In this document: positions 1,998 through 17,868 of the stretch, piece by piece
Position numbering within the stretch: the first letter of the stretch is position 1
Layout of the letters: each line of letters opens with the position of its first letter
From: Halorientalis marina
Lineage (GTDB): Archaea > Halobacteriota > Halobacteria > Halobacteriales > Haloarculaceae
DNA: 64,000 bases
NCBI RefSeq assembly: GCF_023028345.1
Contig: NZ_CP095487.1
Coordinates: 868,001-932,000, forward strand
Direction of reading: 5' to 3'
The notes under the pieces: generated by a model
What the model was told of the DNA's origin: nothing
Databases searched by the model: none
The model's input: the letters and a program-made list of their open reading frames with translations, nothing else
Position numbers and translations under genes: made by a program

Positions 1998-2303
1998 TCA
2001 GTATTCGCCGGTTTTGATGGTTTCGACTATCTCCATCCCTCGCTGATATTTTTCAGTCGCACGGACCTCACGGTTTGGCTTGGTGCCGCCAGTATGGTAG
2101 AGCCACTCCTTACAGCTCGGGCATTTCACCAGCCATCCCTTCCGAACCTCATCGCCACCATAGGACGTTCGATATCTCACCTGTTTTCGTCCTGCCACAC
2201 AGTTATCCGATTTCCTGTTGAAGTGGAACTCTGTCCCGCAGTAAGAACACTCCTTCTGAGTGTAGATGTTTGAGGACCCACAATTCGAACATTCTGAAAC
2301 CAT
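1998..2303 (-). CDS. Zinc-ribbon protein, unknown function
   Basis: A 101-residue protein with paired CxxC motifs: C-S-N-C and C-S-Y-C form one ribbon near the N-terminus, and C-P-S-C around residue 62 gives a further half-site. The C-terminal third is helical and basic/acidic mixed. ATG at 2303 is preferred over an in-frame TTG 15 bases upstream because it starts directly before the zinc knuckle, and an A/T-rich element (AAATAACATA) lies roughly 25-30 bases upstream, as for leaderless transcripts. It is convergent with the small zinc-ribbon gene and 48 bases downstream of the tubulin-like gene on the same strand, so it could be read from either promoter. No function can be assigned. Confidence 0.65.
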   Translation of the reverse strand: MVSECSNCGSSNIYTQKECSYCGTEFHFNRKSDNCVAGRKQVRYRTSYGGDEVRKGWLVKCPSCKEWLYHTGGTKPNREVRATEKYQRGMEIVETIKTGEY

Positions 2304-2351
2304 ATGGAGTGGTTGCAATGCGTATGTTATTTGTTTTGTGCAAGAGGGTGT

Positions 2352-3821
2352 CTATCGTTCGATATCGATTCCGTATTCGGTGGTCAGGTGGGATCGCTCT
2401 TCCTTAGTCAGGTGCATGGCGTATGGAGGCAGCGGGTCAGTGAACACCAGATAGGTCCAGACTGCGACTTCGGGTGTGTCGCCGTTGGGGAACCACGCAT
2501 CTCGCTCCGCGTCTATCGTGACCGACTGGACGTCGTGGGTGTCAATATCGAGTTCGGAGCTGACAACCTGTTCGAGTTCGCTGCAGACTGAGCGGTCAAT
2601 TTCGTCGCGACCATAGGCGAAGAGTAAGGCCTGCTGGACCGTCTCGTGGCAGAAGGCCGCTGCTGAGGTCCAGGCCGAGTAGGTGGTCGCACCCCGCAGT
2701 GCTGTTTCGAAGGTTGCCTGTTCGGTACTGTGCACCTGTGAGGGGAACAGTTGCCGCACAGCGGACGATTCCTGTAAAAAACAGTACCCTGGCGTGACGA
2801 AGCCGTCAGCAAGACACTGAGCGAAGCCAGTCGCATCGAGCGCTCCCCATCCAAAGCCGTGGTCGAGTGCAACATCTGGTGGCTGGAGTGTCCCGAGCAA
2901 CAGGGGGAACAGGGCCCTGACCAGCGACTGGTTTGCCCTCGCTCGGGTCGCACTCTGCACCCAATCTTCGTGTCTGTACAGACGTCTGATGGGGCTCCAG
3001 TCGAGGTCACTCCGGAGGGGTTCGACCAGCGCTCGAAGTTCCTGGAACGGGAGATCCGCCGTTGTGGCAAACGATTGCAGCTTCAGGAGGTCGTTCGACA
3101 CCAAAATCACGTTGTCCACCGTCTCACGCTCGACACGTGTCGCAAGGGAGTCGAGTCGTGGGATAACATTCTCGACGTATGCGGTCTTCACTTCGCGCTC
3201 GGACCCCGGAAGTTGTCGGCAGGGGCGGTCACCCTGCCGGAACGCAGGCGCGACTGCGACCACAGAGACGTGTTGTTCCCGACTGTCGTCGGATGCTCGC
3301 CACCCATCATCCCGGAAGACATCACAGACATGCTCGATAGTGCCGCTCCCGGTCCCACCCATGAGCGAACAGTAGACGATGGCGTGGTCAGACTGCAACT
3401 CCGTCGTCGCTGTGAGGTGGCTACGGATCCAGTTGCCGAGTTCGGGGTGTTCGTCGAACCACCTATCGACCCGCTCTGGGTTGCCCCCACTACCCTGGAA
3501 GGGCGCAATCGTGTGTCGAGAAAGATGGGTGGCGAGACGTTCGTCGTCGATGTGCTCCCGCGTCCTGTCGAATGTCTGCCGGTCAGTGTCGAAGAGGCCG
3601 ACGTTGACGGTCGTGTCAGTACCAGAGTACAGTTCCGAGTCGTCTTCCCCGTCGATCTCGACGAGACCGAGTCGGTGGAACGCAGTCAGAGTACCCCACA
3701 GCAAGCGCGCACCGGCACCCCCGAGACCGGTCACCGTGAGTCGGTGCGCCGGATCGGCGTCCAGCGCAGGTTGGTCTCCTGGACTGGTGGTATCCGGCGC
3801 AGTTCGATTGTCTGGGCTCAT
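2352..3821 (-). CDS. Tubulin/FtsZ-superfamily protein A: GTP loop intact, T7 loop lost
   Basis: A 489-residue member of the tubulin-like group that Pfam calls Tubulin_2 (FtsZl-1 of Makarova and Koonin). Visible motifs: T1 loop GLGGAGAR at 32-39; T4 glycine-rich loop GGTGSG at 155-160, the tubulin signature; a T6-like SND at 242-244, equivalent to P-N-D-R in FtsZ. The T7 loop region at 327-332 reads ALDATG, whereas FtsZ has N-x-D-x-x-D, so the residues that trigger hydrolysis in the neighbouring subunit are missing. It should bind GTP but not activate hydrolysis by itself. The paralogue at 11555-13060 has the opposite pattern. Homology between the two spans almost the whole length, including the G-S-G-G-N-P-E-R-V stretch. 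The promoter element is at 3843-3857. Confidence 0.8.
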   Translation of the reverse strand: MSPDNRTAPDTTSPGDQPALDADPAHRLTVTGLGGAGARLLWGTLTAFHRLGLVEIDGEDDSELYSGTDTTVNVGLFDTDRQTFDRTREHIDDERLATHLSRHTIAPFQGSGGNPERVDRWFDEHPELGNWIRSHLTATTELQSDHAIVYCSLMGGTGSGTIEHVCDVFRDDGWRASDDSREQHVSVVAVAPAFRQGDRPCRQLPGSEREVKTAYVENVIPRLDSLATRVERETVDNVILVSNDLLKLQSFATTADLPFQELRALVEPLRSDLDWSPIRRLYRHEDWVQSATRARANQSLVRALFPLLLGTLQPPDVALDHGFGWGALDATGFAQCLADGFVTPGYCFLQESSAVRQLFPSQVHSTEQATFETALRGATTYSAWTSAAAFCHETVQQALLFAYGRDEIDRSVCSELEQVVSSELDIDTHDVQSVTIDAERDAWFPNGDTPEVAVWTYLVFTDPLPPYAMHLTKEERSHLTTEYGIDIER

Positions 3822-3842
3822 CTTAATTCAAATAGCCATCTT

Positions 3843-3857
3843 TAGTCAATAAAAGTT
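3843..3857 (-). promoter_or_regulatory. TATA-type promoter box of tubulin-like gene A
   Basis: On the minus strand this reads AACTTTTATTGACTA and ends 21 bases before the ATG at 3821. It matches the box in front of the second tubulin-like gene (13084-13098) at 14 of 15 positions, and the TATTGACTAAA portion recurs in front of the tRNA-like gene (7911-7921). The distance fits a leaderless or nearly leaderless transcript. Confidence 0.55.
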
Positions 3858-4048
3858 ACTATTAAAATATTCGGAACAGTTCAGCTGAGAGCTGCCTGGA
3901 CTCCAGGAAATCAGTTACACCACCAGTTCACCGACCCGCAGTGTTTGATGGGCATCACCAAATATCGAGACGAATTCCGGCGTGGGGGCCTGAACAGCCT
4001 GTGGGATGGCACGTGGGCAGTGTCCCGGGACCGAGACGGAGTCTCTCA

Positions 4049-4861
4049 TCACTGGATGTACGTCGGCCTTTCGGACTCGGAGGGATCGTCGCGGTCCCTG
4101 TACGACCCGGGGTCGTGTTCTAGTAGCGACGGGGACGACTGGTCAGCGTCCGTGGTGTCGACATTGGCCGCGTCACGAGTCTCGACTTCGGCTTCCTCGA
4201 CGTCCGGGAGCTGTTCGACTGCGTCTGTAAGTCGCTCGATCGCTTCCTTTTGTCCTCGTAGCTCTGCCGGATGCTGCTGGTCCCACTCGTCTTGCTCCGT
4301 CGTCAGCAACTCCGCCACAGCCTGTGTGAGATTGGCTGCGGTCACGAGTGCCTGGGACGGCTCCTGCTGACTTTCGGCGACGACTGCCGACCCCTCACGG
4401 TATTCAACCGACAGTACCGGCATTCCGTCCTGTTCAGCTGGGACGGCATCGGTGACGATCGCCCGGAGATCCGACCGATACAGACCATAGACTCGCTCCA
4501 ATCGAATGAGGAAGAAGTCATATGACAGAGATGAATACTGGTCCTGGAGCTTTTCCAGCGCGGTCGCCACCTTCGACCCGAAGTTCACCTTGACGTCCTG
4601 CCGAAACCGCTCCCCTGTCACGAGAGTGTGGAACAGCACTGTGTACTGTCCGGGCTTCCGATCTGCCCACTGCCGCAGTTGTTCGCGCACTTCGGCGTCT
4701 TGCCCCTGGACCTGCTGTGTCTGCAGTTCGTCCAGAAACTGTCGCGTCGCGTCAAATTGACCGAGAAATGATTCAACCTCTCGTTCCATCTTCTCCGGCA
4801 ACCCCGTTTTCCCGGACTCGTCTGGCTGATCATCGTCATCGGACTGTGGTTCGTCAGTCAT
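4049..4861 (-). CDS. Acidic hypothetical protein of the tubulin-like locus (270 aa)
   Basis: I do not recognise this family. The 270-residue protein starts at ATG 4861, right after an A/T-rich promoter stretch; longer in-frame extensions upstream are Arg-rich and unlike the rest, so they were dropped. The first 20 residues are Asp-rich; residues 25-70 and 185-235 are Leu/Gln/Glu-rich helices that may coil; the middle (75-180) alternates charged and hydrophobic residues like a small alpha/beta domain. The tail (about 230-270) is Asp/Ser-rich and probably disordered. There is no signal peptide and no membrane segment. It lies between the first tubulin-like gene and the first HEAT-repeat gene on the same strand, which suggests a soluble partner of that system. 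Confidence 0.6.
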   Translation of the reverse strand: MTDEPQSDDDDQPDESGKTGLPEKMEREVESFLGQFDATRQFLDELQTQQVQGQDAEVREQLRQWADRKPGQYTVLFHTLVTGERFRQDVKVNFGSKVATALEKLQDQYSSLSYDFFLIRLERVYGLYRSDLRAIVTDAVPAEQDGMPVLSVEYREGSAVVAESQQEPSQALVTAANLTQAVAELLTTEQDEWDQQHPAELRGQKEAIERLTDAVEQLPDVEEAEVETRDAANVDTTDADQSSPSLLEHDPGSYRDRDDPSESERPTYIQ

Positions 4862-5102
4862 AATAATCACTACTTCTGACTCAATCTTAGTTTTGTATCT
4901 GTAGGGTATAAACTTTGGGACGCATCCCAGATCGTGGAGTATCCGGGACTGTGAGAAACGGGCTACTCGAGGTCCCGTTGCATGGTTTCGATTTCGTTCT
5001 CGTCGGTGAACCCTCGGCTTCGATGTATGGCCGCGGTTTTGGCAGGTCGGCAATGTACTGGCTTGGTCTTTCAGGACTCAGCACACTCCGAATCGATACC
5101 AG

Positions 5103-7556
5103 TCACGCACCGTCGGTCTCGTGTTCTCCGGTCTGCTGGAGCCACGAGTGTACCTCGAGCGCCTGGGTTTGGACGCTCACGGGCGCTTCTTCCACGAGGA
5201 GTCCCTGGAGGTCGTCCCGGACATGACACAGCAGCGCTGGAGACTCCTCGGCCAGCACTTTCAGCGCCCACAGGAGGTTCCGGGTCGGTGTCGGTGTATC
5301 TGGGGACAGTTCCGCCCCGAACTGTTCGATATGGTCGCGGCCAAGACGAGACGCAAGGTCCGGGCTTGTCTCACAAACGTTACGCACACCGCGAGCGGCT
5401 GGTGCTCGGCCCGCGGAGTCGTCGAGGACTGAACCGAGAACCGTAACCACCGAGAGAACCGTTTCCTCGGAGACGGTTTCGTAGCTGTTTGCGGTCGCCA
5501 GTCGCCTCGCTGCTGTGCGTCGAGGATCTCTCAGCGTGGTGTGATCGGCGAGAGACTCGAGTTTGGTCACGAGGTCGGCGAACGCGCGTTCTTTGAGTGG
5601 CGTCGGAACGGAATTACCCGCGACCAGTTCACCCAGTCCGTCGACAGCAGTATCGCTGCGCAGGGTGTAGTCGGCAAGGTAGCTCCGGGCACGCTCCAGA
5701 ACATCGGGCGTGACCAGGTCAGTCTCGGTCAGTCTCGTGAGTACGAATGCGGCAGAGACCTTGGCCGGGCCGGAAATCTGCTCGAGTGGGTTCTCGGTCG
5801 TGGATTCGAGGGCGGCGGCTAGCGTCTCGACGGCGCGGTGACGAAGCGGTTCTCGGACTGCTGCTGTCCCTGCCAGGATCCCGAGCCCTCTGGCACCCTT
5901 CTCTCCCAGTTCCGGCTGAAAGCCGTTGAGCATCTTCACAAGGGAGTCGTAGATCTGGCCGTGCTGGTCAGCCGAGAGGATGTCGGTTCCGACGAGTTCC
6001 ATGAGCTGATCCGTCGCCCAGCCCTGGATGTGTTCCGAATCCGAGTGCTCGTCGTAGGTCAGCGCGGCGAGCAGGGCGTCGGCAGCACGCTCGCGGGTGC
6101 CGTCCTGAAATGCTTCATCACAGGCAATGCTCGCGAGTTGTTTCGCGGCTTGCTCTACGAGAAGAGGACTGGTGAGACTTCCAGGGTCACGACAGAGCAC
6201 CTGTTCGAGCGTCTCGACTGCACGCATACGATGGGACTGGTCAATCACCGGTGTATCTATTTCGGCCAGTTCCTGTGCTGTAAGCCACTTTGTCCCGTCG
6301 TGATCGACAATCAGTCCAGTAGTGAGACCGACGAGGGCACGGCGTCGAAGCGACGTCGAGACCGATGGCGAGTCTGCCAACGTTGCGAGCTCCTGGACGA
6401 CACCACTCGGGGACAAGTCCGGGTCGCCGATTGCGTCTGTGAGGGTGTCGATGACCAGTTCCAGTAGTGGCGTCGACATCGGAGGCGTGCCCACCAACGA
6501 GACGAGCGCTCGTGCGGATTCGGTCCGACGTTCGATATCAGCGTCGTCAAGCGCGGTGGCAGCAGTATAAACGAGTCGGCGCGTGTCTACGATCGCATCC
6601 GGAAGCGCCACTGCATCGCCGAGGCGTGTCCTGGCATGGTCATGCTGGACGATGGTTGCGAATCGAGTATCGATATCGGTCGGGAGATCGGCAGCAGCGG
6701 ACTCAGCGAGGAGCCACCAGACGATACCCGGGCCGGGGTCTGCGCTACTGACGCCGATTCCCTGCTCGAGGTCCGCCCAGAGCTGTCCGGGATCGACCGG
6801 TGAGTCGTACCCGAGTTCGTGGCGACACACATACGCCCACGCCTGCACTCGATACGCTCGCTCGCCGATACCGTCGGCATAGTCGGCCGGTGGCAAAGCT
6901 GACGATGGTAGGCCGTCGATTAGCGGCCGGGTCGAATCGTGCACCGCCAGGATCGCAATTGTTCGAAGTAACTCTCGTAACTGCTCTCGCTCGCTGGTCC
7001 GTGAGAGGAGTGTCTCGAGAGTCGTGCACAGCGACTCCGAATCGGCCCCCGATACAGCCCAATCCAGATGGTTGGCGACAGCGTCCGGCCGAGTAGCAGC
7101 AATCGCGCCGACCGTGCGGAGCGCCTGTCGCGTCGCAGCAGGCGCGGTGGCGTGTTCGAGGACGGATGACGCGGCCCGCAACGCGACTGCGACGTGTTCG
7201 TCCGACTCTCCAGTGTTCGACCGTGACATGGCTTCGGCGAGCGCCGCTGCTCCGTCGCGCCGAACGGCCGCTTCGAAGCGACCGAGCAGCATCGACCTGC
7301 CCTTGCTCCGGGGACTGGGTGTGACTGCGAGCACTGTCTGAGCGATCTCGGGCACGAGATCGCCGATCAGATCGGGCCGTTCGACGGCCAGTTCTCGAGC
7401 AGCTGTGAGCGAATCTGCACGAGCCGAGAGTTCGCCAATCTTCGGATCTGCGGACAGTTCGTCCGCGAGTTGTCGGTCGAGACGGTCGCGTTTCTCCTCG
7501 ACCGACGCGTCAGAAGTGACAGAGTCTTCGCCACCGTCCAGTTGTTCCGTAGTCAT
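5103..7556 (-). CDS. HEAT/ARM-like alpha-helical repeat protein A (817 aa)
   Basis: A large soluble protein made almost wholly of paired helices with the Leu/Ala/Val-rich pattern of HEAT or ARM repeats, for example helices ending R-A-V-E-T-L and R-A-A-D-A-L-L-A-A-L. The N-terminal 35 residues are acidic and probably unstructured. There is no catalytic motif. It is clearly paralogous to 7935-10802: both share a helix pattern around residues 20-95, the motif ELGYDSPVDP in the middle, and an A-P-V-x-V-Q-x-x-A-L segment at the C-terminus. HEAT proteins serve as scaffolds; TOG-type HEAT proteins bind tubulin in eukaryotes, which makes the location next to tubulin-like genes suggestive, although no specific TOG similarity can be claimed. 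Confidence 0.7.
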   Translation of the reverse strand: MTTEQLDGGEDSVTSDASVEEKRDRLDRQLADELSADPKIGELSARADSLTAARELAVERPDLIGDLVPEIAQTVLAVTPSPRSKGRSMLLGRFEAAVRRDGAAALAEAMSRSNTGESDEHVAVALRAASSVLEHATAPAATRQALRTVGAIAATRPDAVANHLDWAVSGADSESLCTTLETLLSRTSEREQLRELLRTIAILAVHDSTRPLIDGLPSSALPPADYADGIGERAYRVQAWAYVCRHELGYDSPVDPGQLWADLEQGIGVSSADPGPGIVWWLLAESAAADLPTDIDTRFATIVQHDHARTRLGDAVALPDAIVDTRRLVYTAATALDDADIERRTESARALVSLVGTPPMSTPLLELVIDTLTDAIGDPDLSPSGVVQELATLADSPSVSTSLRRRALVGLTTGLIVDHDGTKWLTAQELAEIDTPVIDQSHRMRAVETLEQVLCRDPGSLTSPLLVEQAAKQLASIACDEAFQDGTRERAADALLAALTYDEHSDSEHIQGWATDQLMELVGTDILSADQHGQIYDSLVKMLNGFQPELGEKGARGLGILAGTAAVREPLRHRAVETLAAALESTTENPLEQISGPAKVSAAFVLTRLTETDLVTPDVLERARSYLADYTLRSDTAVDGLGELVAGNSVPTPLKERAFADLVTKLESLADHTTLRDPRRTAARRLATANSYETVSEETVLSVVTVLGSVLDDSAGRAPAARGVRNVCETSPDLASRLGRDHIEQFGAELSPDTPTPTRNLLWALKVLAEESPALLCHVRDDLQGLLVEEAPVSVQTQALEVHSWLQQTGEHETDGA

Positions 7557-7769
7557 AAGCCGGTATTGGCAACGTTCCTTGTCGTGTGTTCTACAGCCAG
7601 ATTCGTATCAAACCCAGTATTGGCTGACAGACCGTTCCTGATCGGCGATATCACGACTCCTGACGACACTGACACCAGTTGCACTCGCTGGGCCGGTATC
7701 AGCCGTTCGAGGTCGGTCATCTGCGGTCTGGTGCGTCATAGACTGGTTGGGTCTGCTGGTGTTGAAAAA

Positions 7770-7889
7770 TGGATCGGGGAGGATTTGAACCTCCGGCACG
7801 GCCATGTGTGCCGCCCCGACGACCCGCGGCCGCAGGGGACTGAGCGAGGGCGGCTGGCCGTGTGTTATGCCGGCCTACACCACCGATCC
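7770..7889 (-). tRNA. tRNA-like gene with abnormal extended anticodon arm (possible pseudo-tRNA or intron-bearing)
   Basis: On the minus strand the ends form a perfect 7-bp acceptor stem (GGATCGG with CCGATCC) with discriminator A at 7770, a D arm (stem GTGT/ACAC, loop with the usual GG), and a perfect T arm (GGAGG/CCTCC with loop TTCAAAT). A run of five T follows directly, a typical archaeal tRNA terminator. The anticodon region is wrong: instead of a 17-base arm there are about 62 bases, folding as CGGCC/GGCCG, then a lopsided internal loop, then GCCGCCC/GGGCGGC. No single intron removal that I tried leaves a 7-base loop with U33, so no anticodon can be named. It may be a pseudo-tRNA, a double-intron tRNA or a tRNA-derived RNA. 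Confidence 0.55.
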
Positions 7890-7910
7890 TCTCTGCACCA
7901 CTTACTAATA

Positions 7911-7921
7911 TTTAGTCAATA
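7911..7921 (-). promoter_or_regulatory. Promoter box of the tRNA-like gene
   Basis: The minus strand reads TATTGACTAAA, the same 11 bases as in the promoter of tubulin-like gene A, about 21-24 bases before the 5' end of the tRNA-like gene. This spacing fits a TATA box and suggests that the RNA is transcribed with the tubulin-like genes. Confidence 0.45.
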
Positions 7922-7934
7922 TTAAATCCTTCGG

Positions 7935-10802
7935 TCAGTCGGTCGCCATCGTTCGAACACCGAGCAGCGAGAGCAGTCCCAGTGCCGTTATTTGTACGTC
8001 AACGGGCGCGTCTTCGGTAAGGACGGCCCTGATCTCGGCTCGCAGTGCCTCGAGTCGTACTGGATCGTTCTCTGCGGGGGTCCGAAGGCCGACCAAGAGG
8101 TGGCGTGTCACTGCCGGATCGAGCGTTGAAAGCGCATCGCCGAGGTCTGAAACAAACGAGTGCTTGGCGCTACCTGGCGACGGGAGCGCTCGCTCACAGA
8201 TATCTCGAATCCCGCGGGCCGCTCTTTCTCTAATTTCGTTCCGATCGTCTTCCAGAGCCGTGAGATAGAGTGTCCAGACCCATCCGTGTGTCTCGATCGA
8301 GGCTTCCTCTACCACTAACGCCTCGAGCCGGTCCAGAATATACAGCCGAACGGCCGGGTTATCGGCTTGTTGGGCCGCCTGGAGCACGTCTAGCGCTCGA
8401 CTCACTCTCGCTGTCGTGATCAGCGGTGATGACGACAGCCGAATGATATTCAGCGCAGCCGCCACTCGAACGCGGAGATCGTCGTCCTCAAGCATGCTGG
8501 CCATCGAGTCGGCAGCCGAATCGCTGGCACCCTCGGTGAATTGACCACTTGCGGCGATTGTTGACAGCCCGTCGCCAGCGTGCAGTCTGGTGTCGGGACT
8601 CTCAGCATCGAGTTGTGACTGGAGGGCCCTGACGACTTCGTCGTCCCCGTCGGCCGGCGAGGTTGCCGTTTCTGCCCACGCTGTGAGACCGGCAACAGCT
8701 TCCTCCCGCACAAATTGGTTTTCGTCACGGACCGCAGTGCAAAGCAGATCGCGAACCTGTGACCGCTGCAGCGGCGAGAGCGACGTTGAATCCGCCTGAA
8801 GGAGCAGCTTGGTACCCTGGACGACCTGGTTCCGATCATTACCATCGGAAGCTTCGAAAGCGGTAGTCAATGCTGTGACTATCGTGTCACTCACGGCATC
8901 TGAAACTGCGGCTCTCCCGGTCCACTCGACGAGCGCTCCCGCTACAGCCCCCGCGTCGAAACGCTCAGAGTTACGGAGGGTCGAACCGAGCGTCGGAATC
9001 GCTCGTTCACACAGTTCCGGTGGGGTCGTCTCACCCGCTGCCTGTCTTTTCAGTGCATTAGCTGCAGCCTCCAGAACCTTCGTCGCAGGGTCGTCGAGCG
9101 CTGTTTCGAGTGCTGAAAAGATCCGCCAGTGGGTGTTCGAGGACTGGCCGGTGGTGTCCGCAGCTTCACCAAGTCCCCTCGCGGCGTTCCGGCGTAATTC
9201 CGCGGTGTCAGCCTCCATCGCGCGTTCGAGGACGCAGATCGCCCCCTGTCGCAGGTCCACCGGCACGACGGTGCTACTCGCAAGCAGTTTGCTCCGTTCG
9301 ATGGCCAGTTCACGTACCTCAGCATCGTCGCTGTCGAGTGCACGTTCTAGCGGCGCAACGACCTCCGTCCGTGTCAGGTCTGAGCCATCTTTCGTCCCCT
9401 CGGAGCGTACGAGTTCCCATGCGGCCGTTGCGCGAACGACCGGGTCCGCGTGATCGAGAGCGGTCTCGAGCATCTCACGGACACGGCCGGTCAGTGCGGC
9501 AGTGTCCAGCGTCAACATCGTTCCAAGTTCCTTGAGAGCCGTGTGTCGGACACCAGCGTGGTCTGTGTCCATCGCAGTAGTGATCACCTCGACTGCCCGC
9601 AACCGAACACGCGATGGGATCCCATCCGAGACGGCGAGTTGCTTGAGACCCGCGAGGGCCGGTTTCTGGACGCGGCGGTCGTGATCGTCGACGACCGATT
9701 CGAAATGCTCGACGAGTTGTGTTGCCTCAGTCACCGAGAGTCGAGGCGAACTTGCGATCGCTCCGAGACTCTTGGCCGCCCTCTTCTGGATGCCGGGGTA
9801 GCCGTCTGTGTCGCGGGTCGCGAGGATCATCAACTGGTCGATGAGATCGTTCGTATTGACGAGCGATTCCGGGAGAGTCGCGACCTGGGTGATCCCGATG
9901 TGGCGCTGTTTCTGTATGACGACTGCTGCCGCGTCGGGCCCTGGATCGAGGCCAGGAATCTCTCCGACACTGTAGGTCACCAAGAGCCACCTGTACATCC
10001 CGAATGCATGTCGCTCGTTCTCGATTCGGACCCAGACGTCCGCGGGGTCGACTGGCGAATCGTATCCGAGTTCCCGACAGATCACGTGAATCCAGGTCCT
10101 GCTTCGATACTCATCGACAGTTGCGCAATTCTCGAGGACACGTCGAGGCAGGGTGGCGACGAGGACGGAAAGCCGGTCGTGGCTGACGAGGACTGCAACG
10201 GTCTGCAAAAGCGACACCAGTTCATCGGTGTCGGCCATCTCTGTGAGGGTTGTCTCGACCTGCTCGTTGAACCGATAGAGGTGGCGTTCCCCGTAGTTGT
10301 TCGCCACCCACGTGGCGGTCCAGTCGGGTCGGGTCGCCGCAATCACCCCGAATGCCCGAATCGCGTGCCCAGTCATCTCGGTGTCGTCAGCGTTCGCCAG
10401 TACCGTCTGGATGACCTCGAGAACCCTCTCGAGGCTCTCGGTCTCGTCGGTCGGGAGGTGATTGGCATCGAGTTCGGCAATCGCGGCCAACCCGTGTCGG
10501 AAGACGTCGTCCCTGTAGGCACCGAGCAGGTACTCGCTCCCCTTGCTCCAACGAGTTGCGGCGACACCGGCCATCGTCTGGCTGATCGCTGGGACGAGCG
10601 CGCCGACCTGCTTGGGATGAGCCGTCGACAGATCCCGGGCGTCGGCGAGCGCCTCGGCGCGGCCAGCGAGTTTTCCCAGCGATGCGTCAGCAGGAACCTC
10701 GCGAGCTAGCCGCGTCTCGATGGCCTCCCGTCGAGCTGCCGGGGACGAATCGCTGTCGGTCACCTCACCGGAGTCGACCGATCCGGACTCGAAGCCAGTC
10801 AT
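7935..10802 (-). CDS. HEAT/ARM-like alpha-helical repeat protein B (955 aa)
   Basis: The longer paralogue of the HEAT-like protein at 5103-7556. After about 25 acidic residues it consists of repeated helix pairs, several with the HEAT hallmark Asp/Arg pattern (for example D-x-x-x-x-V-R-x-x-A and V-V-R-A-T-A-A-W), roughly 20 units. It shares with the first copy the N-terminal helical block, ELGYDSPVDP and the C-terminal A-P-V-D-V-Q-x-x-A-L segment, so the two arose by duplication and the 955-residue copy has extra repeats in its centre. There is no enzyme motif, signal peptide or membrane helix. It was probably a scaffold; whether the two HEAT proteins form a pair, as the two tubulin-like proteins may, is inference. 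Confidence 0.7.
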   Translation of the reverse strand: MTGFESGSVDSGEVTDSDSSPAARREAIETRLAREVPADASLGKLAGRAEALADARDLSTAHPKQVGALVPAISQTMAGVAATRWSKGSEYLLGAYRDDVFRHGLAAIAELDANHLPTDETESLERVLEVIQTVLANADDTEMTGHAIRAFGVIAATRPDWTATWVANNYGERHLYRFNEQVETTLTEMADTDELVSLLQTVAVLVSHDRLSVLVATLPRRVLENCATVDEYRSRTWIHVICRELGYDSPVDPADVWVRIENERHAFGMYRWLLVTYSVGEIPGLDPGPDAAAVVIQKQRHIGITQVATLPESLVNTNDLIDQLMILATRDTDGYPGIQKRAAKSLGAIASSPRLSVTEATQLVEHFESVVDDHDRRVQKPALAGLKQLAVSDGIPSRVRLRAVEVITTAMDTDHAGVRHTALKELGTMLTLDTAALTGRVREMLETALDHADPVVRATAAWELVRSEGTKDGSDLTRTEVVAPLERALDSDDAEVRELAIERSKLLASSTVVPVDLRQGAICVLERAMEADTAELRRNAARGLGEAADTTGQSSNTHWRIFSALETALDDPATKVLEAAANALKRQAAGETTPPELCERAIPTLGSTLRNSERFDAGAVAGALVEWTGRAAVSDAVSDTIVTALTTAFEASDGNDRNQVVQGTKLLLQADSTSLSPLQRSQVRDLLCTAVRDENQFVREEAVAGLTAWAETATSPADGDDEVVRALQSQLDAESPDTRLHAGDGLSTIAASGQFTEGASDSAADSMASMLEDDDLRVRVAAALNIIRLSSSPLITTARVSRALDVLQAAQQADNPAVRLYILDRLEALVVEEASIETHGWVWTLYLTALEDDRNEIRERAARGIRDICERALPSPGSAKHSFVSDLGDALSTLDPAVTRHLLVGLRTPAENDPVRLEALRAEIRAVLTEDAPVDVQITALGLLSLLGVRTMATD

Positions 10803-11105
10803 AGATGCGTCTCCCGTCTCCCCACATACCTATGCCAGGTGCATCCCGGCACGATATCTGGCGGTTGCGTGGGTACCGTCGTATCAGTATACCAGTGAGA
10901 CATCCGGATGTCAGTGGCTCTGAAAGACCCCGATACCACGGGTAATGACCGCCCGATACTGAAACTGTCGGGAATGGGGAACACTACGGTAGCGGTTCGG
11001 GAACCAGTGGTCGACCGAACGTGATCTGCTGGCGTTGGTGAGAGATGGAGGGAAAAGCGTCAGGGGGGACTGTTCTGGGGCGTGTGACGGCATCGGTGTC
11101 TCAGT
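10803..11105. other. Intergenic region, no gene seen
   Basis: The 303 bases between HEAT-like gene B and the membrane protein gene, both on the minus strand. The upstream side of the HEAT gene has only a weak TATA candidate (CATAGGTATG on the minus strand about 25 bases before the ATG). Short open frames here have no codon bias or recognisable motif. Confidence 0.5.
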
Positions 11106-11552
11106 CTACCGGAGTGTCTCGTTCTCGTCGGTGTTTTGCGGCCAGGTCTCCCTGGCCCGTTCGCTTCCGTTCATCTCCGAGAGCGACTTGTCCAGGCCGG
11201 TCTGGGAGCCGTCCTGCTGGGTCGAAGGGGTCTGGGAATGCTGCTGGGACTCCTCCGTGCCCGATTGTCCGGTAGCTCCCTGCTGACTGTCCAGGCGGCT
11301 GGCGTGAACACTCAAGCGCTCCTCGAGCATTCGGAGTTCGCTGTGAGCCTGGAGCGTCAGCGCGAGGCTGACCAGTGCCACGGCCAGCGCGGCACCGATC
11401 CCCATCGCCTGCAGGTCGGCCCGGAGTCCGAGATCGAAGACCAGGACGCCGACGATAGCGGCCAGCAGGACGGCGGCGGCCACGAGCAGTGAACGTCGCA
11501 CCGTTGCGGCCGGCGTCGGGCCCTGCAGTCGTCCCACGAGAGTGTCCTTCAT
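11106..11552 (-). CDS. Two-TM membrane protein coupled to tubulin-like gene B
   Basis: A 148-residue membrane protein: two hydrophobic helices at about residues 20-41 and 47-68 joined by a short loop, then a cytoplasmic or external tail that begins with a Leu-rich heptad stretch (70-92) and becomes Gln/Ser/Thr/Glu-rich and disordered. The ATG lies two bases after the stop of the tubulin-like gene, so the two are almost certainly translated from one message. This is the arrangement expected for a membrane anchor or adaptor that tethers the cytoskeletal protein, comparable in logic (not in sequence) to FtsA/ZipA or SepF with FtsZ. I do not recognise the family. Confidence 0.7.
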   Translation of the reverse strand: MKDTLVGRLQGPTPAATVRRSLLVAAAVLLAAIVGVLVFDLGLRADLQAMGIGAALAVALVSLALTLQAHSELRMLEERLSVHASRLDSQQGATGQSGTEESQQHSQTPSTQQDGSQTGLDKSLSEMNGSERARETWPQNTDENETLR

Positions 11553-11554
11553 CG

Positions 11555-13060
11555 TCAGAGCCCCCTCCCGCCAAGGTCGATGTCGTGTTCATCGGTGAGA
11601 TGGGCGCGTTCGTCCGGGCTGAGATGCTGTGCGTAGGGGGACAGCGGGTCGTCGATGTTGGCGTAGGTCCAGACCGCGATCTCGGGGGCACGCTCACCGG
11701 GGAACGTCTCGTCGGTGAAGCCGTCGATCGTCGCCAGCGTCACGTCGTGGGGATTGATGCCCAGTTCGGTGGCGACGCCCTCCCGAATCTCGTAGGCCGA
11801 GGTGGTCGTCACGTCCCGCGACCGGCTGAAGGCGATGGTCGTCGCCCGGTAGACGGAGTCGTTCCGGTAGGCTGCTGCGTTCGTCCACGCGGAGTACTTG
11901 GCGGCACCCTTCAGCGCGGTCTCGAAGTCCGCACCGGCTGGCACATCACGCGGGAACAGTTCGGCGATCTCGTCGACCTCGTTGAGGAAACACCGGCCGG
12001 GAGCGTAGACGCCGTGGCCGAACATGCCCTCGAAGTCCGCGGCGTCGACGTTGGCCCACCCGATGCTCATCGAGATGTCCGGGGGCCGGATGATCCCCAG
12101 ATACTGCGGCCAGACCGATTTCCTGAGCGCGTCGTTCGCGTACATCAACTTGGTCGCGTCGCGCATCTCACCCTGCTGCTGGAAGTACCGGCGGAACTTC
12201 GACCAGTCCAGATTGGTCCGGATCGGTTCGAGGATGCGCCGGAGTTCGTTGTAGGGCATGAGTTTCGAGAGCGCGTGTGACTGGAGCGTTAACAACCCGT
12301 TCGACACCGGCGTCAGAGCGTTGATGTTGCCCTGCTTGACGTGGGTATTGAGGTCATCCAGCCGCGGGATGACGTTGTTCACGAAGGCCGTCCCAGGCAT
12401 GCCCTCCTCGTCAGCGAGTTGCTTGCGTGGGCGGTCGCCGTGCCGGAACGCCGGCAGGATGGCGACGATGGTGACCGGCCCGCGCTGGTCGTCGTCGGCC
12501 TGCAGGTACTTCCCGTCAGTGATGTCCCTGCAGAAGCGGTGTGAGCCCGCGTTGCCCGATCCGCCCAGCAGCGCGATGTGGACGATGGTTCCGGCGGGGT
12601 GTTGCTCTCCCTCCGGCGTGTGCTGGTTGACGAGCCAGTCTGCGAGGTCCGGGTTGTTGTCGAACCAGCGCAGTACCCGCTCGGGATTGCCACCGCTGCC
12701 CTCGTAGGGGGCAATGGTGTTCGAGAGGATGTACTCGGCGAGGGTCGGGTCCTCGACGGCCTCGGGCACCTCCTGTTCGATGAGTTCGTCGGTGTCGAGA
12801 ACGCCGATCTCCAGGACTGAACCGTCGTCCGTGGTGATCTGGGTGCCACCCATGCCCGCGTTGTCGATGTCGATGTATCCACACCGATTCAGCGTATCGA
12901 TGACGATCAGCATGGTACGGGACCCTCCCTCGCCCATCCCAGTGACCTGAACTGGGCGAGATTGCTGTGCATGCGTCGATTCGACAGCAGACGACTCGGT
13001 TGCGGGACCACCGTCGGGTTGTCCTGCCGGGCCGAATCGGTCTCTATCGTCGCGTTCCAT
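11555..13060 (-). CDS. Tubulin/FtsZ-superfamily protein B: GTP loop degenerate, T7 loop intact
   Basis: A 501-residue paralogue of the protein at 2352-3821. The same fold landmarks are present but altered: T1 GMGEGGSR at 41-48; T4 GGSGNAG at 166-172 instead of GGxGxG, which should impair GTP binding; T6-like SNG at 253-255. The T7 loop at 337-342 reads NVDAAD and keeps the N-x-D-x-x-D pattern that in FtsZ completes the GTPase site of the next subunit. The lesions are complementary to those of the first protein, so the pair may copolymerise like alpha/beta tubulin. ATG 13060 is chosen because its distance to the promoter box matches that of the first gene; a GTG at 13069 would add three residues. 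The first 33 residues are disordered. Confidence 0.78.
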   Translation of the reverse strand: MERDDRDRFGPAGQPDGGPATESSAVESTHAQQSRPVQVTGMGEGGSRTMLIVIDTLNRCGYIDIDNAGMGGTQITTDDGSVLEIGVLDTDELIEQEVPEAVEDPTLAEYILSNTIAPYEGSGGNPERVLRWFDNNPDLADWLVNQHTPEGEQHPAGTIVHIALLGGSGNAGSHRFCRDITDGKYLQADDDQRGPVTIVAILPAFRHGDRPRKQLADEEGMPGTAFVNNVIPRLDDLNTHVKQGNINALTPVSNGLLTLQSHALSKLMPYNELRRILEPIRTNLDWSKFRRYFQQQGEMRDATKLMYANDALRKSVWPQYLGIIRPPDISMSIGWANVDAADFEGMFGHGVYAPGRCFLNEVDEIAELFPRDVPAGADFETALKGAAKYSAWTNAAAYRNDSVYRATTIAFSRSRDVTTTSAYEIREGVATELGINPHDVTLATIDGFTDETFPGERAPEIAVWTYANIDDPLSPYAQHLSPDERAHLTDEHDIDLGGRGL

Positions 13061-13083
13061 TGCATCCACTAGTACAGGTATGG

Positions 13084-13098
13084 TAGTAAATAAAAGTT
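13084..13098 (-). promoter_or_regulatory. TATA-type promoter box of tubulin-like gene B
   Basis: The minus strand reads AACTTTTATTTACTA, matching 14 of 15 bases of the box before tubulin-like gene A, and lies 23 bases before the ATG at 13060 (21 bases in the other gene). It is the main A/T-rich element in the 270-base divergent region shared with the GIY-YIG gene. Confidence 0.55.
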
Positions 13099-13333
13099 TT
13101 TCTTAGTCATTATAGTCGTGGGTTTCGCGAATTACAGAATCTCCGCAGGAATCGAATGCGGTTTAATATGCTCGTCTAAGGTTGTGTACGAGGATATAAA
13201 TTGAATACTGCTCTGTCCTCTTGCATATTCGAAACGCGGACTGATTTGTGATTATGAGTAATTATTATCTATATTGACGTGCAACGCCCGAATACACCGA
13301 GCAAATCGGTTGAGGGTGACCACCGAATCCACG

Positions 13334-13717
13334 ATGCCCCCGAAAGGCCGTCCGTATGGGTACAGTCCGGAGAAAATCCGGACGAAAGTTCCCGAGGAGC
13401 CCGGCGTGTACTGGCTCTGGTCGTTTGGCCGCCTGGTACGTGTCGGACAGTCGGTGAACCTCCGCCGGCGTCTCCTCGAATACAGCGATCAACAGCCGAA
13501 CAGATTCCGATTCCAGACCGTTCGACAGTACTTTGCTCGTCGGTCGTGGGCGCTCCACCCACTGACGCCATCGGTCAAGCGATGTCTCGACAAGATCGAA
13601 CACGCCGAACTCACTTGGTTCCAGCGGAAACACGGTCGGTTACCCGACTGGAACGCCCAGCAGAAACAGTACGAGCCGAGTATCGTCGAGCGTCTGCTCT
13701 CCACCGCCCTGTCTTGA
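13334..13717 (+). CDS. Small GIY-YIG-fold protein
   Basis: A 127-residue single-domain protein with the GIY-YIG layout: GVYWL at 24-28, VRVGQS at 35-40 (the YIG half), N-L-R-R-R-L at 42-47 carrying the conserved Arg, a Glu in the IEHAEL helix (89 or 92), and P-D-W-N at 104-107 carrying the metal-site-proximal Asn. The pattern resembles stand-alone GIY-YIG nicking nucleases and UvrC-N-like proteins. No DNA-binding domain is attached. ATG 13334 is chosen; a TTG 60 bases upstream adds an unrelated basic stretch. The gene is divergent from tubulin-like gene B and convergent with the peptidase-like gene. Active cleavage is inferred, not shown. Confidence 0.7.
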   Translation: MPPKGRPYGYSPEKIRTKVPEEPGVYWLWSFGRLVRVGQSVNLRRRLLEYSDQQPNRFRFQTVRQYFARRSWALHPLTPSVKRCLDKIEHAELTWFQRKHGRLPDWNAQQKQYEPSIVERLLSTALS

Positions 13718-13755
13718 GACACGTACCGGCAACTGGCAACGGCAGGGTCGTCCAG

Positions 13756-16023
13756 CTAGCCCATATCCGGGTGCAGCGTCCGCGTCCCACTGTAGGTGTG
13801 GAGCGTATCCAGCACTACGTGTGCCTCGACGACGAAGTTCCCGGACAACTCCGCGAGGCTGTACGATCTGTCGGGTTCCCCACGCTCGACGTCGTACAGA
13901 GAGGGGTCGACCGTCACCTCCTGTCCATCGACAGCGACGGTAACGGATTCGATACCGAGCGCGTCGTGGCCGTCGGCTGCCAGTTCCTCGAGAGCCGCTT
14001 CGACGTTGTCAGGCCCGACGTCAGCGAACCGCGGGCCGAACGTCGAGTAGTCGGGTTCGATGGAGACCGCCGCAGACTGGCTCCACGTCGAGCGGAGGTG
14101 TTCACGGATTCCGGTAACATCGAGCGTGTACTCGACAGTGATCGTTTCGCCGGGCTCGAGTACCACCTCTCGGGTCGGTCGACCGATGACCTCCTCGTCA
14201 CTCAGTTGCTCGACGGAGAGTCGACAGGAGGCTGTCGTCAGCCGGTCGAGAGGGTTCTCGAACTCCACCGTGAACGTCTGCGTGTCGGTAGACACGTCGT
14301 GGAAGCTACCCCAGAGACGCGGGAATGTGACGTCGCCGGTGTCGTCGTGGGGGGCGTCGAAGACATACGCACAATTGGCACAGATCCCGAGGGCGCGTGC
14401 AGCCGGTCCGAACCGATCCTCTCGCACCCGCAGGTAGACCGTGCCGTGACAGTACGGACAGCCGCTGTCGAGTGTCTCCGGCTGTGCCGTGTCGGTCCGA
14501 GACAGATAGAGGTCCTGTATGGAATCCGACTTCCGCTCACAGACCGTCTCGACAAGGTTCCCACGGGCGCGTTCGAGGTGTTCACTCGCCTCCGCGAGCG
14601 CGTCGAGTGTCTCTCGGTAGTCCTGAACTGCGAACCGTTCGGCCGCAGCTTTCTCGTTGACGCGTCGCAGCGCACTACGGCACTCCTTCATCGACTGTCG
14701 GGTGGCTCTCTCCGGCAGCTCAGCCCAGAGGATCTGCTCGGCATCCGGGACTGACTCAGTAAGTGTTGCCATCCGTGCGACGGTTGTGTCCGACCTGTCC
14801 TCGGGGGCGAGTGCCGCGAGTCGCGACCGTGACTCGTCGATGGTTCGAGACGGTGCCACCTCGAACTCGAACTGGTCGGCGACGATCAGTCCCCACGCGT
14901 TGATGACGACCCGGACGTCTTCGCCTTCGCGGAAGGCCGTATAATACAGCGGATGCTTCGGGCCGTCGACACAGCGCACGGCGAACGTCTCCGCGTCCGC
15001 AGCGAAGACGTCCGCCGGTACCCGGACGTCGATGATGGGGGAATCAACGTCGGAGACGGTGACGAAACACCGATCGTCGGCCCGCTCGAGCGTGGTCGTG
15101 TACGTCTGGTCACGGACAGTAGCAGGCGAGGGTTCGTGCGACGGGAGACCGGCGACGACGTAGGGGTACGGCTCGACGCCTGCAGTGACCGCACTTCGGT
15201 TGAGGATGTACGCACGCTCGCCGGCCGAGTACCCAGCACGGAGCAAATTGTGATGCAGGGGTCCATGGTGTTCGACACACTCCGTGATGCGGTACGTCCC
15301 GATCATCGACTCGGCGCCTGCGAGCAGGCTCAGCGCGGTGTGAACCGGTCGGTCCTTGCCATCGTTCATATTCTGCAAAAGCGCGCTACAGCCATCGAGG
15401 AAGACCTGCGGTATTTCGAGGGTTTCGGCCAGAATTGCCTGCTCCTCGACGCGCTGGGACCCTGCGTCCTGGTCGACGAACGGTGGTTGTTGTCCGTCGA
15501 ACGCGAAGTCCGCTGGCGCTGCCGGAAAGCCGCTCAACAGCCCGTCCGCGAGCCGGGAGAACATGTGCGAGCCGTGAAGCACTGTCGACAGCGAGTCGAT
15601 CCCGCCGTCAGCCAGTCCCCGGAGCTGGGCCCGTCGGACCGAATCGCCGGTCAGGAGTGCGGCAGTCTCGTCGTTCGTCCCGATCGATTCGTTCGCGTCC
15701 GGGACTGCGATACAGTGCTGCGTGTCTGCTGACTCCGCCGCCGTCGCTGTCGATTGCGCCCGGTCGAAATAGAGGTCACGAGCCTCTTCGGGCGTGCGGC
15801 CGGTTATCAGCCCGGCGTCGAGGGTGTACGGTTCGGCCTCCATGAACCGCGTCTGGATGGCGCGCAGGTCCGACGGCTGGATCGACCCGGGCGCGTCGAC
15901 GATCAGCACGCTGTCGGCCTGGTGGACGCGGTTGATGTCCGAAACGACCGGCTCGTTCCGGTCGGCCGCGATCTCTTCGGCGAGCGCCGCGTACGGTCCG
16001 TCCGCTGCACGTGTAAAGATCAT
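13756..16023 (-). CDS. Large multidomain protein with possible caspase/CHAT-like peptidase domain and zinc ribbon
   Basis: A 755-residue soluble protein. Residues 1-275 look like a caspase-hemoglobinase fold: a hydrophobic strand DSVLIVD at 37-43, a His after a strand (TVLHGSH, H150 or H153), then a strand ending in Cys (QVFLDGC, C212), followed by a G-A-x-x-M-I-G-T-Y strand and an L-L-x-A-G-Y-S-A-G-E segment, the order seen in CHAT and C25 peptidases. Residues 440-510 are helical. A CxxC...CxxC zinc ribbon lies at 522-551 and beta-rich sandwich-like segments follow to the end. The start at ATG 16023 has an AGGAG ribosome site. It lies 45 bases after glyS on the same strand, so read-through is possible. 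The peptidase assignment is moderate; a structural search would decide. Confidence 0.55.
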   Translation of the reverse strand: MIFTRAADGPYAALAEEIAADRNEPVVSDINRVHQADSVLIVDAPGSIQPSDLRAIQTRFMEAEPYTLDAGLITGRTPEEARDLYFDRAQSTATAAESADTQHCIAVPDANESIGTNDETAALLTGDSVRRAQLRGLADGGIDSLSTVLHGSHMFSRLADGLLSGFPAAPADFAFDGQQPPFVDQDAGSQRVEEQAILAETLEIPQVFLDGCSALLQNMNDGKDRPVHTALSLLAGAESMIGTYRITECVEHHGPLHHNLLRAGYSAGERAYILNRSAVTAGVEPYPYVVAGLPSHEPSPATVRDQTYTTTLERADDRCFVTVSDVDSPIIDVRVPADVFAADAETFAVRCVDGPKHPLYYTAFREGEDVRVVINAWGLIVADQFEFEVAPSRTIDESRSRLAALAPEDRSDTTVARMATLTESVPDAEQILWAELPERATRQSMKECRSALRRVNEKAAAERFAVQDYRETLDALAEASEHLERARGNLVETVCERKSDSIQDLYLSRTDTAQPETLDSGCPYCHGTVYLRVREDRFGPAARALGICANCAYVFDAPHDDTGDVTFPRLWGSFHDVSTDTQTFTVEFENPLDRLTTASCRLSVEQLSDEEVIGRPTREVVLEPGETITVEYTLDVTGIREHLRSTWSQSAAVSIEPDYSTFGPRFADVGPDNVEAALEELAADGHDALGIESVTVAVDGQEVTVDPSLYDVERGEPDRSYSLAELSGNFVVEAHVVLDTLHTYSGTRTLHPDMG

Positions 16024-16068: not shown

Positions 16069-17868
16069 TCAGGCCGCCTCCGCCTTCGGTTCGGTTCGGA
16101 TCTGGTACGCCTCGAGCAGGTCGTCGAACTCGCGTGCCCCGGCCTGCAGGGCGGTGAGTTCCGCGGCGAGGTCTTCGACGGGGACCCAGACCTGCGCGGT
16201 CGAATCCCGGTCGCGGATCGTCACCCGCTCGACGGAGCCGTCGACGACCCCTTCGGGGTCCACCGTGACACAGAAGGGGGTCCCGGCCTCGTCTTGTCGG
16301 CGGTAGCGACGGCCGATTCGCCCCCCGGCGTCGAACTCGACCGGAAGCCCTGCCGAACGAAGCTCGTCGGCGAGAGACCGTGCCGCGTCGTCGACTGTAT
16401 CGCGGAGGGGGAGGACGGCGGCGAGCGTCGGTGCAACGACCGGGTCCAGGGACATGACGGTCCGCTGATCGTCGCTCCCGGGAACTGCGTCGACCTCGAG
16501 TGCGTGGTGGAGCACGCTGTAGACGATGCGGTCGATGCCGAACGACGGCTCGATGATCTTCGGATGCTCGTGGTCGCCCTCCTTCGTGACCTCGACGCGC
16601 TCCACGTCGACCGCGTCGGTCGGGACCGTCACCTCGCCGTTGCCGAGTTCGACCGTCACCGTGTCGCCGTCGAAGGCGGACGGATCGGCTGCGCCCTTCC
16701 GTTCGAGCGCCTGCTTGACGGCGTCGGCCTGCTCGCCGAACTCCGGCCCGATGACGCTCATGTCCGGATCGACGACGACCTGCTCTTCGGTGCGGGGCGC
16801 GTCGAAGGGCCTGAAGATCTGGTAGGCGGTCTCGTCACCAGTGTGAGCCCCGTGTTTCCGCAGATCGTAGCTCCCGCGGTCGGCGAATCCGGTCACTTCG
16901 AGCCAGTCACTGTCGATCTCCGTTTCGGCGTCCCAGCAGTCAGACGCGTAGTGGGCGCGCTCGTCGGGCTGGTGCTGCCGGAACCGAAGCCGTGCGGGGT
17001 CGATGCCGATGCGGACGTACCACTCCTTCGCGATGCCGATGTAGTACGCGATCCACGGGTCGGCGATGACGCCCTCGTCGACGGCCTCGCCGATCGTCGT
17101 GTCGAACGGGGCGCCGTCGTCTGCCTGCTGGGCCTCGCTCGGGTACAGCGTCACCGGCACCTCGCGAACCCGTTCGAGGTCGGGCTCGTGTTTCGCGGGG
17201 TCGATGAAGTGTTCCAGTTCGGCCTGGGTGAACTCCCGTAGCCGCTCGAGTCCGCCCCGCGGGCTGATCTCGTTGCGGTACGAGCGCCCGATCTGGGTGA
17301 CAGCGAAGGGCAATTGCTTGTTTTCGTACTGTTTGAGTCGGTGGAAGTCGGCGAAGATGCCCTGTGCCGTCTCCGGACGGAGATAGCCGGGCGTCGAGCT
17401 ACCCGGCCCGATGCTGGTCTCGAACATCAGGTTGTGGTCGATCACGGACTGGCCAGTTAGGTCAGTGCCGCACTCGGGACAGACGAGCTCGTGCTCCGCG
17501 ATGAGTGATTCGACCTCCTCGTTGGGGAGTGACTCCGCTTCCTCGATGCCGGTGTTGTCCTCGACGATGTGATCGGCCCGTTCGCTCTGTCCGCACTGTG
17601 GACACTCGACGAGCATGTCGTCGAACCCGTCGAGGTGTCCCGAAGCCTCGAACACGGCTTCGCCCATCACGGTCGGCGCTTCGATCTCGACGTGCCCCTC
17701 CTCGACGGTGAACCGCTGGCGCCAGTCGTTCTCGATTCGCCGCTTGACGCCGGTCCCGTGGGGTCCGAGCGTCCAGAGTCCGCCTTCTCCACCGTAGTTC
17801 TCCGCAGTCTGGTGGAAGAAGCCGACTCGCTTTGCCACACTCCGCAGGTTGTCGTCGTGATCTGTCAT
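16069..17868 (-). CDS. glyS: Glycyl-tRNA synthetase, archaeal/eukaryotic dimeric type
   Basis: A 599-residue class II synthetase that charges tRNA-Gly with glycine in the cytoplasm. Visible landmarks: the N-terminal V-A-K-R-x-G-F-F motif, GGLWTLGPHG, two CxxC pairs (C-P-Q-C and C-P-E-C) of the insertion, motif 2 region R-x-E-I-S-P-R-G-G-L-x-R, the F-x-Q-A-E-x-E-H-F motif, motif 3 EPSFGIDR and the C-terminal anticodon-binding domain. ATG 17868 is preferred over an in-frame start 51 bases upstream that would begin inside the A/T-rich promoter; AAGTATAAGTTAAA lies about 30-38 bases before the ATG. It is divergent from the SIMPL-domain gene. Confidence 0.97.
   Translation of the reverse strand: MTDHDDNLRSVAKRVGFFHQTAENYGGEGGLWTLGPHGTGVKRRIENDWRQRFTVEEGHVEIEAPTVMGEAVFEASGHLDGFDDMLVECPQCGQSERADHIVEDNTGIEEAESLPNEEVESLIAEHELVCPECGTDLTGQSVIDHNLMFETSIGPGSSTPGYLRPETAQGIFADFHRLKQYENKQLPFAVTQIGRSYRNEISPRGGLERLREFTQAELEHFIDPAKHEPDLERVREVPVTLYPSEAQQADDGAPFDTTIGEAVDEGVIADPWIAYYIGIAKEWYVRIGIDPARLRFRQHQPDERAHYASDCWDAETEIDSDWLEVTGFADRGSYDLRKHGAHTGDETAYQIFRPFDAPRTEEQVVVDPDMSVIGPEFGEQADAVKQALERKGAADPSAFDGDTVTVELGNGEVTVPTDAVDVERVEVTKEGDHEHPKIIEPSFGIDRIVYSVLHHALEVDAVPGSDDQRTVMSLDPVVAPTLAAVLPLRDTVDDAARSLADELRSAGLPVEFDAGGRIGRRYRRQDEAGTPFCVTVDPEGVVDGSVERVTIRDRDSTAQVWVPVEDLAAELTALQAGAREFDDLLEAYQIRTEPKAEAA

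What the first reader, a model, noticed from the sequence alone, without database searches (positions are those of the whole stretch)
2352..13060. Two tubulin-like paralogues with complementary active-site losses: a likely obligate two-subunit GTPase polymer
In tubulin/FtsZ filaments the GTP bound by one subunit is hydrolysed with help from the T7 loop of the next. Protein A (2352-3821) has a normal T4 loop (GGTGSG, 155-160) but its T7 loop (ALDATG, 327-332) has lost the Asn and the second Asp. Protein B (11555-13060) has a broken T4 loop (GGSGNAG, 166-172) but keeps T7 as NVDAAD (337-342). Each has what the other lacks, as expected if A binds GTP and B activates it in an alternating A/B filament, similar in logic to alpha/beta tubulin. 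The motif readings are direct; the copolymer is inference. I know of no such pair described for haloarchaea.
Basis: partly seen in the sequence, partly recalled or inferred. Interest (0 to 1): 0.95.

Follow-up and report, generated by a model that had tools for sequence, protein, structure and literature searches.

The report
Haloarchaeal two-part tubulin-like filament pair
An unnamed, likely salt-loving archaeon carries two sister tubulin-like genes, one of which has lost the acidic residue with which such proteins normally break down a neighbour's GTP while the other keeps it, so the two are predicted to build a mixed filament in which the second would switch the first, much as alpha- and beta-tubulin do.

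The parts
2352..3821 (-). Protein A, 489 aa: tubulin/FtsZ-like paralogue with FtsZ-like T4 (GGTGSG 155-160) and T6 (VSND), T7 ALDATG (327-332) without the second acid
   Evidence: (Pfam Tubulin 8.3e-07, 29.9 bits, under the cut-off of 33)
3843..3857 (-). AACTTTTATTGACTA, TATA/BRE-like element (label by eye) starting 36 nt before the A start codon
11555..13060 (-). Protein B, 501 aa (504 from a GTG at 13069): tubulin/FtsZ fold, T4 GGSGNAG (166-172), T7 NVDAAD (337-342)
13084..13098 (-). AACTTTTATTTACTA, TATA/BRE-like element (label by eye) starting 29 nt before the B GTG; 14 of 15 identical to the element of A
11106..11552 (-). 148 aa protein with two hydrophobic segments then a polar tail, 2 nt behind B: likely membrane tether
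   Evidence: small membrane proteins without sequence similarity to it follow the tubulin gene in L013 and L014
7935..10802 (-). HEAT-repeat protein, 955 aa
5103..7556 (-). 817 aa paralogue of the HEAT protein (28% identity over 648 columns); no Pfam match of its own
4049..4861 (-). 270 aa protein of unknown function from an internal Met (the ORF extends to 334 aa at 5053), between the 817 aa gene and A
1998..2318 (-). 106 aa protein with weak zinc-ribbon matches, 33 nt behind A

Best explanation
A and B are two sister proteins of an FtsZ/CetZ-like family, and they are predicted to assemble into a mixed, likely alternating filament in which the T7 loop of B would complete the GTPase site of A. 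A would bind GTP in its FtsZ-like pocket and play the part of beta-tubulin; B, whose T7 acid is kept, would play alpha-tubulin. The reverse interface (B's pocket against A's T7 without the acid) would not hydrolyse GTP and would act as a stable joint. B is likely held at the membrane by the small membrane protein encoded 2 nt behind it, and the two HEAT-type proteins probably bind or brace the filament. Shown: paralogy, B's predicted fold, the T7 and T4 differences, the shared promoter-like element, the gene order. Inferred: GTP binding, co-assembly, hydrolysis, tethering, the role of the HEAT proteins.
Against: Only two A-type sequences turned up. H. sediminis is listed with a B-type protein and no A, so B-type proteins need no A everywhere. 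T1 scores better in B than in A, and B's T4 is not clearly dead. A's model failed (pLDDT 34.8); B's is the one good model of five, and its T7 is low-confidence. T7 registered in only 4 of 16 isolated-segment alignments and in one of two full-length references. Gaps of 303 and 378 nt and separate promoter-like elements argue against one tight operon. The promoter element was picked after seeing both upstreams; a common 10-mer arises in 5 of 500 Markov nulls. No complex could be modelled.
Confidence: 0.4

Rival explanations
1. A is a non-catalytic regulator of a B homofilament: it binds B's nucleotide end with its acid-free T7 and caps or slows the filament.
For: A B-type protein is listed without an A; B keeps the T7 acids and three T4 glycines; the membrane-protein gene follows B, not A.
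Against: A's own T4 and T6 are the more FtsZ-like ones, unneeded in a mere cap; the shared promoter-like element suggests similar expression of both.
Confidence: 0.22
2. A and B make separate filaments or serve separate jobs and are only neighbours after a gene duplication.
For: Separate promoter-like elements, gaps of 303 and 378 nt between gene groups, only 40% identity.
Against: An A homofilament would lack the second T7 acid at every interface, so it could hardly be a normal GTPase filament.
Confidence: 0.18
3. Both are decayed, non-hydrolysing scaffold proteins, for instance within a stress or conflict island with HEAT proteins and a kinase/phosphatase/VWA gene set.
For: Low-GC stretch with PP2C, VWA and a sub-threshold protein-kinase match 21-26 kb left of A; B's T4 and both T1 loops depart from FtsZ; tubulins occur in predicted conflict systems (PMC7159879, passages).
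Against: The second T7 acid is Asp in 5 of 5 B-type proteins, and T3 GSGGNP[ED] is kept in all 6 A- and B-type proteins that cover it, which suggests selection on nucleotide chemistry. No PADLOC family matched the eight proteins scanned.
Confidence: 0.2

Closest known systems
alpha/beta-tubulin and Asgard AtubA/AtubB (PMC13394414, passages)
   Same: Two paralogues; one T7 keeps the catalytic acid, the other has lost it, so every second interface would be inactive.
   Different: A and B belong to an FtsZ/CetZ-like family of their own. The acid is replaced by Gly, not Lys. Heterodimer and microtubule are not shown.
CetZ (haloarchaeal tubulin-like proteins)
   Different: The FtsZ/CetZ profile does not report A or B at E 1, while ten CetZ-type ORFs of other genomes score 2e-41 or better; the own genome has four other FtsZ/CetZ-type genes over the Pfam cut-off.
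FtsZl1 family (Makarova and Koonin 2010, PMC2875224; section 3 part 1 and section 6 read)
   Same: Diverged FtsZ-like protein among genes for unknown, partly membrane proteins, with VWA and kinase genes; first seen in a haloarchaeon (Halorhabdus utahensis).
   [quoted passage not shown] B has the whole tubulin-type fold in about 500 aa.
BtubA/BtubB (PMC3232192, passages)
   Same: Prokaryotic tubulin pair forming heterodimers.
   Different: Both Btubs keep an activating T7; here only B does.
Halo.Tub (PMC9871819, passages)
   Same: CetZ-like tubulins of Halobacterota with several copies in quasi-tandem.
   Different: Not compared: no Halo.Tub sequence was at hand.

Membership tests
FtsZ/tubulin superfamily | Two-domain tubulin/FtsZ fold | tested here: met
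FtsZ/tubulin superfamily | Score above Pfam's PF00091 cut-off (33 bits) | tested here: not met
   A 29.9 bits, B no match.
FtsZ/tubulin superfamily | Gly-rich T4 signature loop | tested here: met
   A GGTGSG; B GGSGNA, degenerate.
FtsZ/tubulin superfamily | Acid pair in T7 | tested here: not met
   Met by B (NVDAAD) and 5 of 5 B-type proteins; not met by A-type, 0 of 2 with the second acid.
CetZ | Match to an FtsZ/CetZ sequence profile like that of CetZ-type proteins | tested here: not met
   A and B not reported at E 1; ten CetZ-type ORFs give 2e-41 or better.
FtsZl1 | FtsZ-like N-terminus, extended coiled coil, helical C-terminus | tested here: not met
   B's model shows a tubulin-type fold to residue 493.
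FtsZl1 | Operon with a VWA-domain gene | tested here: inconclusive
   A VWA gene lies about 21 kb left of A in the same low-GC stretch, not in one operon.
alpha/beta-type tubulin heterodimer | Only one of two paralogues keeps the T7 catalytic acid | tested here: met
alpha/beta-type tubulin heterodimer | The two subunits always occur together | tested here: inconclusive
   Both in the window's genome; P0005 of H. sediminis has no listed A; the contigs of P0003-P0007 were not read.
alpha/beta-type tubulin heterodimer | Stable heterodimer and polymerisation with GTP | not testable with these tools
   needs purified proteins
MoxR-vWA ternary systems (PMC7159879, passages) | MoxR ATPase plus vWA core next to the tubulin | tested here: inconclusive
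   A MoxR-type AAA gene lies in the locus of the remote relative in G006. None among the eight main window proteins of 1998-16023; off-window only nine proteins were scanned.

The most novel reading that the evidence does not exclude
A further, independent invention of the alpha/beta-tubulin principle: inside an FtsZ/CetZ-like haloarchaeal family a duplication split the GTPase between two subunits (A the pocket, B the T7 trigger), giving a membrane-tethered alternating filament braced by two paralogous HEAT proteins. Unpaired relatives such as P0005 of H. sediminis, which keep both a near-normal T4 and the T7 acid, would show the unsplit state.
Probability: 0.3. Interest if true: 0.85.

Novelty: new variant of a known kind. 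Interest (0 to 1): 0.6.

Why it matters
Why tubulin-like polymers turn into heterodimers with one dead interface is open; the authors of PMC13394414 suggest convergence between Asgard AtubAB and eukaryotic alpha/beta-tubulin (passage). A case outside tubulins proper, in a group with workable genetics, would let the split of the GTPase between two subunits be tested directly, with natural unpaired relatives as controls.

Tried and rejected
A's structure: AlphaFold with 7 sequences gave pLDDT 34.8, so nothing is concluded from it. B's good model is the best of five; the others have pLDDT 35-45.

T7 by isolated segments: 4 of 16 hhalign runs paired NVDAAD with FtsZ T7 (the 4 local runs with all 9 members, E 0.05-0.09); 12 did not. 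With two CetZs in the reference set the full-length global alignment lost T7.

Wider relatives: none confirmed in viral contigs or GTDB 220 genome contigs, in plasmids (A and B) or phage records (B only). The protein searches scored only the roughly 8000 best-sharing candidates each, and genome searches scored few candidates per genome. Weak genome hits were dropped: 1 of 4 (G226), 4 of 5, 18 of 21. Of those 18, four (genus g47) are 257-272 aa frames, the one read out looking like a short-chain dehydrogenase by eye. Twelve (genus g3) hold CetZ-type frames (name by eye); the ten fetched score 2e-41 or better against FtsZ/CetZ. Two (G041, G058) are other tubulin-like proteins with T7 VVDLQD, nearer to FtsZ/CetZ than to this family.

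HEAT proteins as a marker: 89 of 392 genomes match the HEAT profile, by their length mostly partial repeat matches. In nine fetched HEAT regions no tubulin-like ORF matched either profile.

Loop scores: the FtsZ windows were picked by motif patterns, so their invariant columns are partly by construction; one of 31 T6 windows was mis-picked.

Considered and dropped: that A lost a guanine-contact Asp in H7 (ANQ against AND). Laying archaeal on E. coli FtsZ by eye (E. coli from recall) puts the contact at the invariant Asn before it.

Bacterial-type promoter and terminator scan: no help. Defence system: no PADLOC or NCBIfam match for A or B, PHROGs only at E 0.06-0.08 for A and two relatives.

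Print: searches listed no paper on such a pair in haloarchaea by title and abstract; this covers only the held open library. In PMC9856176 (passages) 'T7 loop' and 'heteropolymer' do not occur.

Full report
What is there. A (3821-2352) and B (13060-11555) are intact minus-strand ORFs, 40% identical over 464 columns. Between them, all on the same strand, lie a 148 aa protein with two hydrophobic segments (2 nt behind B), a 955 aa HEAT protein and its 817 aa paralogue (28% identity), and a protein of unknown function (270 aa from an internal Met); a 106 aa protein with weak zinc-ribbon matches follows A. Gaps: 2, 303, 378, 49 (to the 334 aa ORF), 227 and 33 nt, so this is not one tight operon.

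Active-site loops. Table: T4 is GGTGSG in 2 of 2 A-type; GGSGNA in 3 and GGTGNG in 1 of the 4 B-type proteins with that region; GGSGNG (G006) and GGNGGA (G184). The second T7 acid is Asp in 5 of 5 B-type, Asp in G006, Glu in G184, Gly in 2 of 2 A-type. Against 31 archaeal FtsZ sequences A scores 7.6, 4.5, 8.1 and -19.3 bits for T4, T6, T1 and T7, and B -1.2, -2.4, 13.6 and -2.1. So A has the better T4 and T6, B the better T7 and T1.

Is it T7? In favour: full-length alignment to FtsZ; the best local alignment of the segment in 4 of 4 runs with all 9 members (E 0.05-0.09); a weak but exactly registered match to a CetZ-type T7; and the place in B's model between helices 297-324 and 340-347. Against: no registration in one of two full-length references and in 12 of 16 segment runs, and low confidence of that loop. 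I accept the assignment at about 90% (judgement).

Are A and B a pair? For: same gene group, same strand, and an almost identical 15-base element (AACTTTTATT[G/T]ACTA) starting 36 nt before A's start and 29 nt before B's GTG. At up to 2 mismatches it occurs nowhere else in the window and in 0 of 100 shuffles; the 8-mer CTTTTATT also occurs only there. The rest of the upstreams agree at chance level (22 of 84 and 1 of 14), and six other genes nearby share at most 8 bases in a row with either. I chose the pattern after seeing it, archaeal TATA boxes resemble one another, and a common 10-mer came up in 5 of 500 nulls, so this is moderate evidence. Against: H. sediminis is listed with a B-type protein only.

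Tree. A-type (2) and B-type (5) separate, with P0005/P0007 the first branch of the B side. The remote relatives sit on very long branches, so the root is uncertain. P0005, with a near-normal T4, both T7 acids and no listed A, looks like an unsplit state; this is inference.

Surroundings. In G006 and G184 a small membrane-protein gene also follows the tubulin gene directly; the three membrane proteins show no significant sequence similarity to each other. The G006 locus also has a second tubulin-like gene (593 aa), a 1490 aa HEAT protein and a MoxR-type ATPase; a 636 aa neighbour looks VWA-like by eye only, without a Pfam match. Left of the window the own genome has PP2C, VWA and a sub-threshold kinase match, and five more HEAT paralogues. 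GC is 0.59-0.61 over this stretch against 0.68 for window 16069-64000, so it is likely an accessory island.

Mechanism and known systems. PMC13394414 (passages) states that K254 in beta-tubulin's T7 blocks and E254 in alpha's completes hydrolysis, and that Asgard AtubA/AtubB likely have one inactive interface, perhaps by convergence. A/B would follow the same logic in another family: A like beta, B like alpha. PMC8936486 (passages) gives the role of the two T7 aspartates in FtsZ. Nothing here shows GTP binding, co-assembly or hydrolysis. I give the split-GTPase filament 0.40, and the regulator, decay and independent models 0.22, 0.20 and 0.18.

Noticed in passing
window 18741-19802 (+): 353 aa protein weakly like FtsZ (profile domain E 6e-4; PDB FtsZ E 0.03) with no Gly-rich T4 loop by eye: probably a degenerate FtsZ paralogue, a third tubulin-superfamily gene in the window.
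   Followed up: partly
window 16069-17868 (-): Divergent second glycyl-tRNA synthetase: the own genome has another copy at C1:174230-176014 (58% identical), and the best match in each of seven same-genus genomes is 56-59% identical to the window copy.
   Followed up: partly
own genome C1:849-862.5 kb (L027) and C1:835 kb (L026), left of the window: Five HEAT-repeat paralogues of the window's two, near PP2C, VWA and kinase-like genes that resemble the TerY-P triad (name recalled).
   Followed up: partly
L013 (G006:C9:98000-117500): Locus with two different tubulin-like genes, a 1490 aa HEAT protein, a MoxR-type ATPase and two long proteins with an N-terminal hydrophobic segment.
   Followed up: partly
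L115, L121 (G058, G041): 398-413 aa tubulin-like proteins with T4 GGGTGCG and T7 VVDLQD, only E 1e-13 to 3e-12 to FtsZ/CetZ: another diverged haloarchaeal family.
   Followed up: no
window 13756-16023 (-): 755 aa protein of unknown function; a short stretch resembles GlyRS residues 363-428 (39%).
   Followed up: no
window 32932-34185 (+): 417 aa ORF that reads like a TnpB-type transposon protein (by eye; no family search).
   Followed up: no
window 13274-13717 (+): 147 aa ORF upstream of B that reads like a GIY-YIG nuclease (by eye; no family search).
   Followed up: no
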